A DNA stretch of 64,000 bases from contig NZ_REGA01000017.1 in the NCBI RefSeq assembly GCF_003841505.1, forward strand, positions 1 to 64,000. The letters run 5' to 3'. Origin of the DNA: Natrarchaeobius chitinivorans (GTDB lineage Archaea > Halobacteriota > Halobacteria > Halobacteriales > Natrialbaceae). Position numbers and translations under genes: made by a program. Below the pieces are notes generated by a model. That model made no database searches. It worked only from the letters and a program-made list of their open reading frames with translations, and was not told where the DNA came from. The stretch's first letter is position 1, and every line of letters starts with the position of its first letter. Shown in pieces: positions 2,692 to 10,795 of the stretch.

Positions 2692-4020
2692 TCAGTCGTC
2701 GTCGGCCGTTCCGATCCGAAGATCGGAGCGACCGTTCGCATCGATCAGCGACGGCGAGCCGCCTTCGTCGCCGAATTCGGGATTGAACAGCTGGAGCGCG
2801 GTGTCGATCGTACACCAGTCGTCTTCGGCCGCCGCCTCCCGAAGGCTCCGCGTCGGCGGGGCGAGTAACTGACTCACCAGCGCGTCGGCCATCGATTCGA
2901 CGACCTCCCGCTGGTCCGGCGTCAACTCCCCGTCGAGTCGCGAGAGCGCCGTCTCGAGCTCTCGTTTTTTGATCCGTTCGGCGGATTCGTACATCGCGGC
3001 GATGACCTCGTCCGCGCGGGCTCGCTTGTACTGTTCACAGAGCAGGTCGAATTCGCGGTCGATCATGGCCTCGACCTCCCGGGCCGCGTCGACGCGTTGC
3101 TCGCGGGTTTCCTCGGTGACCGACTCGAGGTCGTCGAGGTCGTAGACGGTGACACTCGACAGCGCATCGGTCGCCGGGTCGACGTCGCGGGGCTGGCCGA
3201 GGTCGACGATCACCCGGTCGTCCTCGTAGCCTGCATCGCCCATCGCGACGTGGGCCGGTTCGAGTATCGGTTCCCTGCTGTTGGTTGCCGTGACGACGAC
3301 GTCGGCGGCGGTCACCATGGTCGCGAGGTCGTCGAGCGAAACGGCCCGGGCGTCCGTCTCGAGCCCATCGATCAGATGCGTTGCGTTGGAAACGGTCCGG
3401 TTGGCGACGACGAGTTCGTCGACGTCGGTCTCTGCGAGGCTGCGTGCCGCGAGTCGACCCATCTCGCCCGCACCGACGACCACCGCACGCGCCCCCGCGA
3501 GCGGGACGGTCTCGGCGGCGAGCTTTACTGCGGCGGAACCCAGCGAGACGACACCCTCGTTGATCTCCGTCTCCGTCCGCGCGCGTTCACCGACGTGGAT
3601 CGACTTCGTGACGGCGGCCTCGAGCATCGAGCCGATTCCGCCGGCCGCCCGGGCGTCTTCGTAGGCGGTTCGGACCTGACCGCTGATCTGGTCTTCGCCG
3701 ATGATGACCGACTCGAGACCCGCCGCAACGCGAAGCAGATGTTCGAGACTCTCCTCGTGGTCGGTGAGAACGACGGCCTCGTCGTCGACAGCGGAGAAGA
3801 ACTCCTCGAGGGTGGCCCGGCCGACCGCGGCGTCGGAGCCGACGACGTACGCTTCCACGCGATTACACGTCGAGAGGACGTAGGCTTCGTCGATTCCGGG
3901 AACCGAGAGCAACCGCTCGACGCCAGCGCGCTGACTCTCGGGGCTCGCAGCGGCGAGTTCGTCGACGGATGCGCTGTCGTGAGAGACGCGTGCAGCCGTG
4001 ACGACGCCCGAGGGGATCAC
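2692..4020 (-). CDS. hemA: Glutamyl-tRNA reductase
   Basis: HemA reduces the glutamate on glutamyl-tRNA(Glu) to glutamate-1-semialdehyde with NADPH, the first committed step of tetrapyrrole synthesis by the C5 pathway. The 442-residue protein has the catalytic Cys52 in VLSTCNRVEAYV, the substrate segment EDQISGQVRTAYEDAR, a Rossmann motif VVVGAGEMGRLAARSL near residue 185, and a C-terminal dimerisation helix bundle. Its ATG overlaps the end of the upstream precorrin-2 dehydrogenase gene by 4 bp, indicating translational coupling. A Ser/acid-rich tail of about 25 residues follows the conserved domain. Confidence 0.95.
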   Translation of the reverse strand: MIPSGVVTAARVSHDSASVDELAAASPESQRAGVERLLSVPGIDEAYVLSTCNRVEAYVVGSDAAVGRATLEEFFSAVDDEAVVLTDHEESLEHLLRVAAGLESVIIGEDQISGQVRTAYEDARAAGGIGSMLEAAVTKSIHVGERARTETEINEGVVSLGSAAVKLAAETVPLAGARAVVVGAGEMGRLAARSLAETDVDELVVANRTVSNATHLIDGLETDARAVSLDDLATMVTAADVVVTATNSREPILEPAHVAMGDAGYEDDRVIVDLGQPRDVDPATDALSSVTVYDLDDLESVTEETREQRVDAAREVEAMIDREFDLLCEQYKRARADEVIAAMYESAERIKKRELETALSRLDGELTPDQREVVESMADALVSQLLAPPTRSLREAAAEDDWCTIDTALQLFNPEFGDEGGSPSLIDANGRSDLRIGTADDD

Positions 4021-6467: not shown

Positions 6468-7439
6468 ATGAGGCGGTGGTTCCGGCAGTACGTCGATGCG
6501 GCCTACGAGCGGTTGCTCTCGCGTGAAATCTCCGGCGCGCCGACACACGTGGCGGTGATTCAGGACGGCAACAGACGGTACGCTCGTCGCAACGGGGGAG
6601 ATGCCCACGACGGCCACCGCGCCGGCGTCGAGACGACCGAACGCATCCTCGAGTGGTGTAACGACGTCGGGGTCGAGGAGTTGACGCTCTATACGTTCTC
6701 GACCGAGAACTTCGATCGGCCGGCCGAACAGAACGAAGCGCTGTTCGATCTCCTCTGTGAGAAACTTCGCGAGTTCGCCGACGCCGAACAGGTACACGAA
6801 CACGAGATCTGCATACGCGCGATCGGCGAGACGGAGATGCTTCCCGAACGCGTCCAGAACGCGGTCGATTACGCCGAGCGTCGCACCCGCGAGTACGACC
6901 GGTTCGTCCTCAACATCGCACTCGCCTACGGCGGCCGCTCGAGGCTGCTCGAGGCCACCCGCGGCGTCGCCGCCGACGTCGAGGCGGGCGACCTCGAACC
7001 CGACCAGATCGACGTCGAGACGATCGAGCGGCGGCTCTACGACCGACCGGTCCGTGACGTCGACCTGATTATCCGGACCGGCGGCGACGAACGCACCTCG
7101 AACTTCCTGCCGTGGCACGCCAACGGCAACGAGGCGGCCGTCTTCTTCTGTACGCCGTACTGGCCGGAGTTCTCGAAAGCCGACTTCCTCCGGGGAATCA
7201 GAACCTACGAACACCGGGCCGAGTCCTGGCGGCGAACCCGCGCTCGCAGGGCACTCGCCCTCCTCGCTGCGGTGAGCGAACCGGACCTGCCGGAAGCCCG
7301 CTCGATCGTCGACCGCTTCCGGGACTCGCTGCCGACCGCCGAACGCTCCGACCTCGAGGCCATCGAACGCGCCGACGCCTCGAACGAGAACGGGCAAGGA
7401 GTCGAGGGGATCGACTCGAGCGGACGGGCGGCCGACTGA
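6468..7439 (+). CDS. uppS: Cis-prenyltransferase (polyprenyl diphosphate synthase, UppS family)
   Basis: The 323-residue protein condenses isopentenyl diphosphate in cis onto an allylic primer to make the long polyprenyl diphosphate used for the dolichol-type glycan carrier. It has the catalytic motif HVAVIQDGNRRYAR (Asp33), the substrate region TLYTFSTENFDRP, and the C-terminal signature DLIIRTGGDERTSNFLPW, which supplies the diphosphate-binding Arg and Ser residues. The C-terminal 60 residues (after about 260) form an extra charged tail. A second, apparently non-catalytic family member lies at 10190-10795, so the active enzyme may be heteromeric. Confidence 0.92.
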   Translation: MRRWFRQYVDAAYERLLSREISGAPTHVAVIQDGNRRYARRNGGDAHDGHRAGVETTERILEWCNDVGVEELTLYTFSTENFDRPAEQNEALFDLLCEKLREFADAEQVHEHEICIRAIGETEMLPERVQNAVDYAERRTREYDRFVLNIALAYGGRSRLLEATRGVAADVEAGDLEPDQIDVETIERRLYDRPVRDVDLIIRTGGDERTSNFLPWHANGNEAAVFFCTPYWPEFSKADFLRGIRTYEHRAESWRRTRARRALALLAAVSEPDLPEARSIVDRFRDSLPTAERSDLEAIERADASNENGQGVEGIDSSGRAAD

Positions 7440-7601: not shown

Positions 7602-7655
7602 TCACAGTACGAGAACGTCTCACAGTACGAGAACGTCTCACAGTACGAGCAACAG
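7602..7655. repeat. 18-bp tandem repeat across a stop codon
   Basis: The unit TCACAGTACGAGAACGTC occurs at 7602-7619 and 7620-7637, and a diverged third copy is at 7638-7655. The third copy contains the stop codon of the minus-strand membrane protein gene; the other two repeat that stop and its preceding codons downstream. Confidence 0.85.
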
Positions 7656-8234
7656 TACTCCGTACGCGGTCGCACCCACCGCGAACGGCCAGAATCGACT
7701 CTCCCGCGTTCGAGGAAGTTCGTCTTTGATCGAGTTGAAGACGATGCCGCCGGTCAGCAGGCCGAGCAGGGTCGTGAACGCGACGTCGGAAAGCGCGTAC
7801 GCCGCACCGACGCCGGCACCGAGGACGACCGCCGCCGCGAGGACCCACTTGCCAAAGCGGCCATACAGGTCGCGGTGGTGGTGTTCCATCGCTTCGTCGT
7901 TTCCGAAGAGGTGAAGCGCCATCGCGATTCCAAACAGCGCGACGTTGTCGGTTCCCGTCTCGCCCCGGACGAGCGCGTAGCCGATGAACGCGTTGTAGAC
8001 GGCGAAGCCACCGACGTGTACCCAGAAGACCGGTTCCTCCGTGAACGACCCCAGTTCGCGCCCGAATTCGTGAGAGCGCGACAGCGCCGCAAGCCGCTCG
8101 AGGCCGTAAAATAGCGCGAGTCCGACGAACGCGACGGCGTAGACGTGGTGTGCCGCAAGCGACCAGACGAACAGCGTGACGCCCTCGAGTGCCTCCTGGC
8201 GCTCGTCGAGTTCGGGCAGCAAGTGTACGAACGC
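7638..8234 (-). pseudogene. 3' part of a ZIP-like membrane protein gene split by an IS1341-type element
   Basis: The last 198 codons of a multi-spanning membrane protein start at AFVHLLPELDERQEALEGV and run to the C-terminus. About six hydrophobic segments are visible, with His-rich spots (SLAAHHVYAV, NDEAMEHHHRDL) and LTGGIVFNSIKDELP. The pattern recalls ZIP-type metal transporters but I cannot name the substrate. The frame continues exactly from the 58 codons at 9739-9912: joining the two gives TGGVSIVY followed by AFVHLLPEL, a 256-residue protein without gap. An ATG at 8267 lies inside the IS right end and could allow a truncated product. Confidence 0.85.
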
Positions 8235-8400
8235 GTGAAGTACCGCGGGCGCGGTGGCCCGCGGCATCCGTGTCTACCCCTCGCTGGGCGCAACGGACTT
8301 TAATTCCCTTCGCACTTGCTCCCCGCTGGAAGCTTGTGCCGCCGTTCCGCGGCGATTAACACCCGAATCAAATATTGGTCCGTGAGGGTCGGCCCCTCCA
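8235..8400 (-). ncRNA. Possible TnpB-associated guide RNA (omega RNA / reRNA) region
   Basis: In IS605-family elements the RNA that guides TnpB derives from the 3' end of tnpB plus the right end, and its guide is the flank just beyond the boundary. Here that flank is the host gene from 8234 downward. The right-end hairpin at 8243-8264 fits the scaffold. The 5' limit is a guess, and there is no direct evidence of transcription. Confidence 0.35.
8243..8264 (-). other. Right-end hairpin of the IS1341-type element
   Basis: CCGCGGGC pairs perfectly with GCCCGCGG around a six-base loop, ending about 8 bp before the IS right boundary. This is the position of the transposase recognition hairpin in IS605-family elements and of the 3' structure of the TnpB guide RNA. 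Confidence 0.8.
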
Positions 8401-9623
8401 CCAGGGCCCGATACCGTCCGTCTCACCTTCGTTACTCGCGGAAGGGTGTTGAGAGACGGCACAGTCTCATCTCTATCCCACAGCCACTCCTGACATACGC
8501 ACACTGCTGCTTTCCGATCTGCATGATCCTGGAACGAACACGCCGTACACTTGAACCGCTTCTTCCTGCGGTTTGTACGAGCTTTGTGCAAGCACTCAGT
8601 GCATGGGCAACGCTGACTCGTGTATTCAGGATCGACGTCTTGGCTTGGGATGGCGTTCCAAGCGGCTTTGTACGTGATGAATTCGCGTAGTTTAGCGAAT
8701 GGGAGGCTGTGGAGGCGTCGATTCATTTTGGTGCCGTAGTCGATGTCGTCTCGCATGTCTTTGAGGTCTTCAAAGACAACAACCGGTGTATCGAACTGCG
8801 AGAGCCACTCGACCACGTCCCGTGAAACCTTGTGAAGCTGATCGTGAACGAAGTCCCGTTCCTCAGTCTGCACGACCGCATCCATCGCACTCTGTCCCGC
8901 CTCTTGCATACGCTTGCGTTTCGTGAAGAACTCGTGACGCACACGCTTGATATCGGGATATTCGATGACCGTGGAATCGATGACGCCGTCTTCACGGGTC
9001 ATGGCGGCGAGTGCGATGCAGTCTTCGTTGATATCGACACCGACGATCGTTTCAGCGGTATCTGGTGAGGCAACTGTGTGCGTTTCGTGAGTAGTGGTGA
9101 CGTGAAGCCGCCATTCGTCGTGTTTGTACACGAGTTCGGCAGTGCCGACACGCCAGTCAACGCTGGTAAGTGCAGTCTTTACTCGTTCGAGGTGATCTGG
9201 GCTGCCCTGGAGGGTGCCGCGAACGAAGTGCCGTTTCTTGTAACTGATGCGGAACTCAACCTCTCCATCTTCGTTGAGTGTGAGGGCGTACCCTTCATTG
9301 TGATTCATCCGCACCGGGTACGGCTCATCGATGTATGTTCGCGGCCTGCCCCAGTCAAGGCGATCGTTGTCTTTGTGTTCGTGGTAGGTTTCGATCTCTT
9401 GGAGAGCCTTCTCGATGAGTTGTTGGGTGGTGTTTTTGACGTGGATAGCGCGTTCAGTGACGGGATCTTCGATGTCGTCCCAGTTCCACCCTTGCCGGTC
9501 GAGGCGGTTGACTTCGTTACGGATGCGTCTGGCTTCAAGCGACGCCTCACGCAAGTTGGCAGGCTCACCCTCGGTAATGTCGAGACCGAACGACAGCGAG
9601 CGGGTGAGTGCTACCTCTTGCAT
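8274..9623 (-). CDS. tnpB: RNA-guided endonuclease TnpB (IS1341 group)
   Basis: TnpB is the RNA-guided RuvC nuclease of IS605-family elements and the ancestor of Cas12. From the ATG at 9623 (MQEVALTRSLSFGLDI) it has 449 residues. RuvC motifs are present: Asp in ETIVGVDINEDCIALAA, Glu in TPVVVFEDLKDMRDD, and Asp in FQDHADRKAAVCV. The zinc ribbon is Cys-x-Cys-x2-Cys (SQRCPCTEC) and Cys-x2-Cys (FKCTACSF). All three catalytic acids are intact, so it is probably a working nuclease. The position where homologues usually read DxNAA is DRKAA here. The ATG at 9647 is an alternative start. Confidence 0.9.
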   Translation of the reverse strand: MQEVALTRSLSFGLDITEGEPANLREASLEARRIRNEVNRLDRQGWNWDDIEDPVTERAIHVKNTTQQLIEKALQEIETYHEHKDNDRLDWGRPRTYIDEPYPVRMNHNEGYALTLNEDGEVEFRISYKKRHFVRGTLQGSPDHLERVKTALTSVDWRVGTAELVYKHDEWRLHVTTTHETHTVASPDTAETIVGVDINEDCIALAAMTREDGVIDSTVIEYPDIKRVRHEFFTKRKRMQEAGQSAMDAVVQTEERDFVHDQLHKVSRDVVEWLSQFDTPVVVFEDLKDMRDDIDYGTKMNRRLHSLPFAKLREFITYKAAWNAIPSQDVDPEYTSQRCPCTECLHKARTNRRKKRFKCTACSFQDHADRKAAVCVCQEWLWDRDETVPSLNTLPRVTKVRRTVSGPGGGADPHGPIFDSGVNRRGTAAQASSGEQVRRELKSVAPSEG

Positions 9624-9697
9624 ATGTCTATCATTGTGATAACCCATTGTAAAACTACAGATCCGCAGTGAGAGTTGCACTGAGTGACGGCATTCAG

Positions 9698-9719
9698 CCC
9701 CGGGCACGGTGGCCCAGGG
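9698..9719 (-). other. Left-end hairpin of the IS1341-type element
   Basis: CCCTGGGCCACC and GTGCCCGGGG form an imperfect stem about 20 bp inside the left boundary. Its loop and stem resemble the right-end hairpin, as expected for the pair recognised by a Y1 transposase. Confidence 0.7.
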
Positions 9720-9738
9720 CACTCTGCCTGTTACCTCT

Positions 9739-9912
9739 GTAGACGATCGAGACGCCTCCGGTCAGCGAGAGCAGGTTCTCCCTCGAGAGACCGACCGAAT
9801 CGGGGAGCTCGTCGGGCAGCAGGTGGACGGTCGCGACGATCGCCACGAGAACGACGACGAGAATCGTCTCGCTGTCGACCGCCGTCGCGAACGCGGCGGG
9901 CATCGTTCGCAA
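9739..9912 (-). pseudogene. 5' part of the ZIP-like membrane protein gene interrupted by the IS
   Basis: Fifty-eight codons encode MRTMPAAFATAVDSETILVV and a first membrane span, then LSRENLLSLTGGVSIVY, where the IS begins. Beyond 9739 the frame runs into IS sequence and is lost. It joins seamlessly to codons at 8234-7638. An alternative start is the ATG four codons later. Confidence 0.85.
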
Positions 9913-10077: not shown

Positions 10078-10161
10078 ACTGCCGCTCGAACCGACGCGAA
10101 CCCCGACTGCCGCTCGAATCGACGCGAACCCCGACTGCCGCTCGAATCGACGCGAACCCTG
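10078..10161. repeat. 28-bp tandem repeat, three copies
   Basis: Units begin at 10078, 10106 and 10134. Each reads ACTGCCGCTCGAAYCGACGC followed by GAACCCYG, with single-base differences between copies. They lie in the 277-bp gap 9913-10189 between the interrupted membrane protein gene and the 3' end of the second cis-prenyltransferase gene. Nothing else is recognised in that gap. Confidence 0.9.
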
Positions 10162-10189
10162 ACTACCGGCGGATTGATACGAAATTCGA

Positions 10190-10795
10190 TCATCGGCCGA
10201 ACCGTCGCGATCGGTTGCAGTACTCCCTGACGGCTCGCAGGAAGTCCCGTCTCCGAAAGTCCCGCCAGTTGACGTCCGTGAAGTACAGTTCGGAGTAGAC
10301 CGACTGCCAGATCATGAAATCCGAGAGCCGTTCGGCCCCGGTCTTGACGACCAGATCCGGTTCCGAGGGGAAGACGAGGTGTTCTTCGACCCGTTCGTCG
10401 TCGATCTCCTCGGGATCGATCTCCCCGGCCTCGACGCCCTCTGCGAGCGTCCGGACGGCGCTCGTAAACTCGTGTTTGCCGCCGAGACCGATACCGATCT
10501 GTATCGGTGCGTCCGCCGTCGTCCGGTCGTCCGGGCCACGGACTGCTACGTCACGCGGCGCGTCGATCTCCTCGAGGTCGCCTCGCAGCGCCGGAACGGC
10601 TTCGGCATCGAGGACGCTGACGTAGACGGTTACCCGCGTCGCGTACTCGAAGGCCCACTCGAGACAGTCGGCGAGCGTCTCGTAGCCGCCGGGTTCGAGC
10701 AGATCGCGCTCGGTGATGACGAGTGCGACGTGATCGGGGGGGTCCCCCTCGTGGCGTCGAATTCGACGAGCGAGGTAGCGTTCGTACAGTCCCAC
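10190..10795 (-). CDS. Non-catalytic cis-prenyltransferase homologue (NgBR/Nus1-like subunit)
   Basis: This 201-residue protein aligns with UppS over its whole length but has lost the catalytic motif: where UppS reads HVAVIQDGNRR this reads HVALVITERDL, replacing the Asp, Gly and Asn. The C-terminal half is well kept (DLVVKTGAERLSDFMIWQ, then SELYFTDVNWRDF). The last residues are RRFGR, giving an Arg-x-Gly near the C-terminus like the RxG motif that NgBR/Nus1 subunits contribute to the active site of heteromeric enzymes. I infer a regulatory or co-catalytic partner of the uppS product at 6468-7439. A diverged stand-alone enzyme is the alternative. Confidence 0.8.
   Translation of the reverse strand: MGLYERYLARRIRRHEGDPPDHVALVITERDLLEPGGYETLADCLEWAFEYATRVTVYVSVLDAEAVPALRGDLEEIDAPRDVAVRGPDDRTTADAPIQIGIGLGGKHEFTSAVRTLAEGVEAGEIDPEEIDDERVEEHLVFPSEPDLVVKTGAERLSDFMIWQSVYSELYFTDVNWRDFRRRDFLRAVREYCNRSRRFGR

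What the first reader, a model, noticed from the sequence alone, without database searches (positions are those of the whole stretch)
8235..9738. TnpB-only IS with base-exact boundaries splits a ZIP-like gene; precise excision would restore the frame
Removing 8235-9738 joins ATCGTCTAC to GCGTTCGTACAC and re-creates an uninterrupted 256-codon membrane protein, with no target duplication. Both ends carry similar hairpins. TnpB keeps all three RuvC acids, so this looks like a recent insertion with a working RNA-guided nuclease and a guide that should target the empty site (flank at 8234 and below; left flank CTAC as candidate TAM).
Basis: partly seen in the sequence, partly recalled or inferred. 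Interest (0 to 1): 0.65.

Follow-up and report, generated by a model that had tools for sequence, protein, structure and literature searches.

The report
TnpB jumping gene interrupting membrane-protein gene
A small jumping gene carrying an intact-looking RNA-guided DNA cutter has landed, to the exact base, inside a membrane-protein gene of a salt-loving archaeon; comparison with relatives confirms its ends, its landing motif and its guide-RNA scaffold, but it is an ordinary member of a well-known kind.

Summary
Bases 8235-9738 (minus strand) are a 1,504-bp TnpB-only IS200/IS605-family (IS1341-type) element in a haloarchaeal gene. Three congeners keep the gene uninterrupted across the same junction (TCTAC|GCGTT), so the insertion is exact, with no duplication or loss. 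About 35 related elements share the right end (...TTCAC|) and then diverge. The left flank is TCTAC in 9 of 9 insertions of the closest subfamily and TCTAT or TCTAC in 30 of 30 elements anchored from inside (chance 2.4%). The last ~226 nt form a covarying RNA scaffold, related to Rfam sot2652 though below its cut-off, running directly into host sequence as the guide. All three RuvC acids are intact and the TnpB core is under purifying selection. The genome holds one Y1 transposase, in a separate IS605 with related ends, as a possible helper. Nuclease activity, RNA expression and excision are inferred, not shown. 'ZIP-like' is only weakly supported. This is a new member of a known kind.

The parts
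8235..9738 (-). whole TnpB-only IS200/IS605 (IS1341-type) element, 1504 bp
   Evidence: exact junction with empty sites in congeners; shared ends with relatives
9739..9743 (-). target/TAM motif TCTAC in host DNA, left flank of the element
   Evidence: TCTAC in 9/9 close-subfamily insertions; TCTAY in 30/30 internally anchored elements, chance 2.4%
9697..9722 (-). left-end subterminal hairpin
   Evidence: sequence; shared with relatives and mini-elements
8274..9647 (-). tnpB gene (ATG at 9647; 457 aa); RuvC D 9033-9035, E 8769-8771, D 8517-8519; zinc ribbon
   Evidence: PF07282 E=1.9e-16; NF040570 guided_TnpB 142.6 bits, over cut-off 100; acids invariant in the family; core dN/dS 0.09-0.20
8235..8460 (-). 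omegaRNA scaffold overlapping the tnpB 3' end and the right end
   Evidence: RF02657 sot2652 match 8215-8464, E=4.6e-8, 45.1 bits (below gathering score 61); 16 of 48 pairs compensatory in 26 relatives
8242..8265 (-). right-end subterminal hairpin, 3' hairpin of the omegaRNA
   Evidence: compensatory changes
8215..8234 (-). predicted guide, GCGTTCGTACACTTGCTGCC, host sequence directly after the right end
   Evidence: position relative to the right end; inferred from TnpB biology (PMC8612924)
9739..9903 (-). 5' piece of the interrupted host gene (55 codons from ATG)
7638..8234 (-). 3' piece of the interrupted host gene (198 codons plus stop), polytopic membrane protein, weakly ZIP-like

Best explanation
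A TnpB-only IS200/IS605 element inserted recently, 3' of a TCTAC motif, into a conserved membrane-protein gene of a haloarchaeon, probably as a single-stranded circle mobilised in trans by a Y1 transposase such as the single one encoded on contig C6 (inferred). The 3' end of the tnpB transcript carries a structured omegaRNA (conserved structure shown) that runs off the right end into host DNA, so its guide is the host sequence GCGTTCGTACACTTGC... (inferred). TnpB with this RNA is expected to cut the empty site TCTAC+guide after excision or on an incoming empty allele, so that repair from the occupied copy keeps the element in place (inferred from ISDra2 and related TnpBs). Precise excision at the defined ends would restore the host reading frame.
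For: Exact empty sites in congeners. Right end shared by about 35 elements with unrelated flanks. Left-flank TCTAC in 9/9 close elements, TCTAY in 30/30 anchored from inside. Six copies 99.7-100% identical at different TCTAT sites in G024 show that this type of TnpB-only element moves. Catalytic acids invariant, zinc cysteines kept. Core dN/dS 0.09-0.20, rising to about 0.4-1.1 with low dS in the last 75 codons where the RNA overlaps. Covariation of the RNA, 0/500 shuffles reach the score; RF02657-related. One intact Y1 TnpA in the genome, in an IS605 with related ends. Host gene pieces show dN/dS 0.21-0.25 against congeners, like intact congeners among themselves (0.25-0.30), so the insertion is recent.
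Against: No expression or activity data. The element has no TnpA of its own. The only helper's IS605 sits after TCTAA and ends TTTAC rather than TTCAC, so trans-recognition is not certain. Two genomes with close relatives (G047, G096) show no Y1 transposase. The Rfam match is below the gathering score.
Confidence: 0.87

Rival explanations
1. The element is an inert passenger: TnpB or its RNA is no longer expressed or active, and the insertion is simply a gene knockout.
For: Single copy in this genome; no TnpA inside the element; activity untested.
Against: Open frame, intact RuvC triad and zinc cysteines, purifying selection on the core, conserved RNA with compensatory pairs.
Confidence: 0.1
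2. TnpB acts as a homing nuclease at this conserved site across species: the guide would match the same gene in other haloarchaea and promote copying into empty alleles after mating.
For: Congener sites keep TCTAC and the first 8 guide bases in G001 and G002; G015 keeps TCTAC plus 12 bases.
Against: None of the other genomes with a recognisable site is occupied. Congeners differ at 3-4 of the first 20 guide positions. Related elements sit at unrelated sites.
Confidence: 0.04
3. The insertion is an IStron-like element removed from RNA by splicing, so the host gene is still expressed.
For: TnpB elements with group I introns are known (own knowledge; a reference listed in PMC12558985).
Against: No group I intron or other splicing RNA matched by Rfam up to E=5 in 8100-9900.
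Confidence: 0.01

Closest known systems
TnpB-only (IS1341-type) IS200/IS605 elements of haloarchaea, such as the ISNph and ISHwa series (PMC3119063)
   Same: TnpB only, subterminal palindromes, no terminal inverted repeats, no target duplication, short fixed target oligonucleotide, core-deleted short derivatives
   Different: not matched to a named ISfinder element (ISfinder was not available); target TCTAC established here
ISDra2 TnpB of Deinococcus radiodurans (PMC8612924)
   Same: RuvC RNA-guided nuclease, right-end RNA with guide from the flank, TAM equal to the transposon target
   Different: ISDra2 carries tnpA and uses TTGAT; this element has no tnpA and uses TCTAC
Halobacterium sot2652 omegaRNA, Rfam RF02657 (PMC12558985)
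   Same: same position at the tnpB 3' end, matches over the whole model including the 3' hairpin
   Different: 45.1 bits, below the gathering score of 61

Membership tests
IS200/IS605, TnpB-only (IS1341-type) | TnpB with RuvC D-E-D and zinc ribbon | tested here: met
   PF07282; NF040570 over its cut-off; alignment of 31 relatives
IS200/IS605, TnpB-only (IS1341-type) | subterminal hairpins at both ends, no terminal inverted repeats, no target duplication | tested here: met
IS200/IS605, TnpB-only (IS1341-type) | insertion 3' of a fixed 4-6 nt target | tested here: met
   TCTAC 9/9; TCTAY 30/30
IS200/IS605, TnpB-only (IS1341-type) | mobilised by a Y1 transposase | tested here: inconclusive
   none in the element; one in the genome with related ends; none found in G047 and G096
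RNA-guided TnpB nuclease | structured right-end RNA running into the flank as guide | tested here: met
   sequence and covariation; expression not tested
RNA-guided TnpB nuclease | TAM-dependent cleavage of the guide-matched target | not testable with these tools
   needs biochemistry
Rfam RF02657 sot2652 | score at or above gathering threshold 61 | tested here: not met
   45.1 bits, E=4.6e-8; related, not filed as a member
ZIP metal transporter (interrupted gene) | Pfam PF02535 match | tested here: inconclusive
   no Pfam or NCBIfam hit for the joined window protein; 7 of 10 homologues match at E up to 1, best 0.00099

The most novel reading that the evidence does not exclude
The TnpB of this element cuts the same conserved site in other haloarchaeal species and acts as a cross-species homing or gene-drive nuclease in mating haloarchaea.
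Probability: 0.04. Interest if true: 0.7.

Novelty: new member of a known kind. Interest (0 to 1): 0.3.

Why it matters
It gives a haloarchaeal TnpB with base-exact ends, a statistically supported TAM (TCTAC/TCTAY), a covarying guide-RNA scaffold and a known empty site, so a salt-adapted RNA-guided nuclease could be tested directly. It also bears on an older puzzle: how haloarchaeal TnpB-only elements move where intact TnpA is scarce (PMC3119063).

Tried and rejected
IStron/group I intron: no Rfam match. Nuclease-dead TnpB repressor: rejected, all three acids intact. Viral carriage: no relative confirmed in viral contigs. Repeated use of the same site: no other genome among the homologues is occupied. 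A profile search of the host protein against PDB sequences gave no meaningful hit. No structure prediction of the host protein was made: the joined protein is not a sequence of the window, and its homologues came from a source that the folding tool does not list. The count had the motif built into its search pattern, so the TAM claim rests, whose patterns lie inside the element.

Full report
What is there. The window lies in a 4.57-Mb haloarchaeal draft genome. On the minus strand, 9738 to 8235 is a 1,504-bp element: left end AGAGGTAACAGGCAGAG + hairpin, tnpB, right end ...hairpin + ACTTCAC. Its GC content is 56% against 64% in the flanks. It is the only copy in the genome; ten other TnpB relatives there are 26-40% identical.

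The junction. Sliding the cut gives no alternative position. Congeners G001, G002 and G003 carry the gene uninterrupted with the same TCTACGCGTT at the site. No base was duplicated or lost. The two gene pieces have dN/dS of 0.21-0.25 against congeners, much as intact congeners have among themselves (0.25-0.30), and no further lesions, so the insertion is recent on that time scale.

The ends. About 35 related elements, found by DNA search, end at the same base, nearly all in TACTTCAC, and then run into unrelated sequence. Searching 125 genomes of the family with a pattern lying wholly inside the left end, together with one more left end seen (the short element of G047 contig 67), gives nine insertions of the close subfamily; all nine have TCTAC just outside, and seven of nine have G before it, which may be chance. 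For the wider clade, elements anchored on an internal motif have TCTAT or TCTAC upstream in 30 of 30 distinct cases, where 2.4% would be expected by chance for TCTA in that stretch. The motif is thus TCTAY, C here. One genome (G024) holds six copies, 99.7-100% identical, each at its own TCTAT site, so this type of TnpB-only element is mobile.

The protein. NCBIfam places it as RNA-guided TnpB over cut-off, Pfam PF07282; solved relatives are Cas12f and TnpB structures. The RuvC acids are invariant in the relatives and the zinc cysteines nearly so. The core is under purifying selection (dN/dS 0.09-0.20); in the last 75 codons the ratio rises to about 0.4-1.1 while synonymous change falls, as expected where an RNA overlaps the reading frame.

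The RNA. Rfam sot2652, a haloarchaeal omegaRNA, matches 8215-8464 with E=4.6e-8 but below its gathering score. In an alignment of 26 relatives, eight helices are supported, 98% of cells pair, 16 pairs change on both sides, and no shuffle of 500 reaches the covariation score; sliding the partners destroys it. The structure was derived from this same alignment, so the slid control leans in its favour, but the compensatory counts are large. The scaffold ends at the right end, so the guide is the host sequence GCGTTCGTACACTTGC, and the empty site TCTAC+guide would be its target. This step rests on established TnpB biology (PMC8612924).

Mobility. The element has no TnpA. The genome has one Y1 transposase, in an IS605 whose ends resemble this element's (TCTAA before the left end...GTTTAC at the right). 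Trans-mobilisation is plausible but unproven. Two genomes with close relatives show no Y1 transposase, which echoes the difficulty noted for Haloquadratum (PMC3119063).

The host gene. It is a conserved polytopic membrane protein lying between two undecaprenyl diphosphate synthase-like genes. Pfam Zip matches seven of ten homologues weakly, best E 0.001, and not the window's own protein; 'ZIP-like' is a lead only.

Novelty. Haloarchaeal TnpB-only elements, their target oligonucleotides, their omegaRNAs and their short core-deleted forms are all described (PMC3119063, PMC12558985). This is a well-defined new member of that kind, useful as a test object, not a surprise.

Noticed in passing
G113:C7 near 3093-3110 (L178) and G096:C48 near 76474-76491 (L187): Mini-elements of about 50 bp made of the left-end foot, one hairpin and the right-end foot, after TCTAC; they look like the core-deleted 'terminal-only' elements described for Haloquadratum (PMC3119063).
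   Followed up: partly
G047:C67:205703-205889 and G177:C2:544581 (L183, about 330 bp): Short non-autonomous derivatives with both ends but no tnpB, after TCTAC.
   Followed up: partly
window 8267-7638 (minus): An ATG at the foot of the right-end hairpin is in frame with the 3' piece of the host gene (MPRATAPAVLH|AFVHLL..., 209 aa), so the element could drive a truncated host protein.
   Followed up: no
window 7602-7649 and 10078-10168: Two short tandem arrays: period 18, 2.7 copies, just after the host gene's stop codon region; period 28, 3.2 copies.
   Followed up: no
window 6468-7436 (+) and 10193-10795 (-): The interrupted gene lies between two undecaprenyl diphosphate synthase-family genes; the second matches only the C-terminal half of the Pfam model.
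   Followed up: no
G121:C41 copy (L140): This relative carries a duplicated left end plus tnpB start upstream, making it about 165 bp longer.
   Followed up: no
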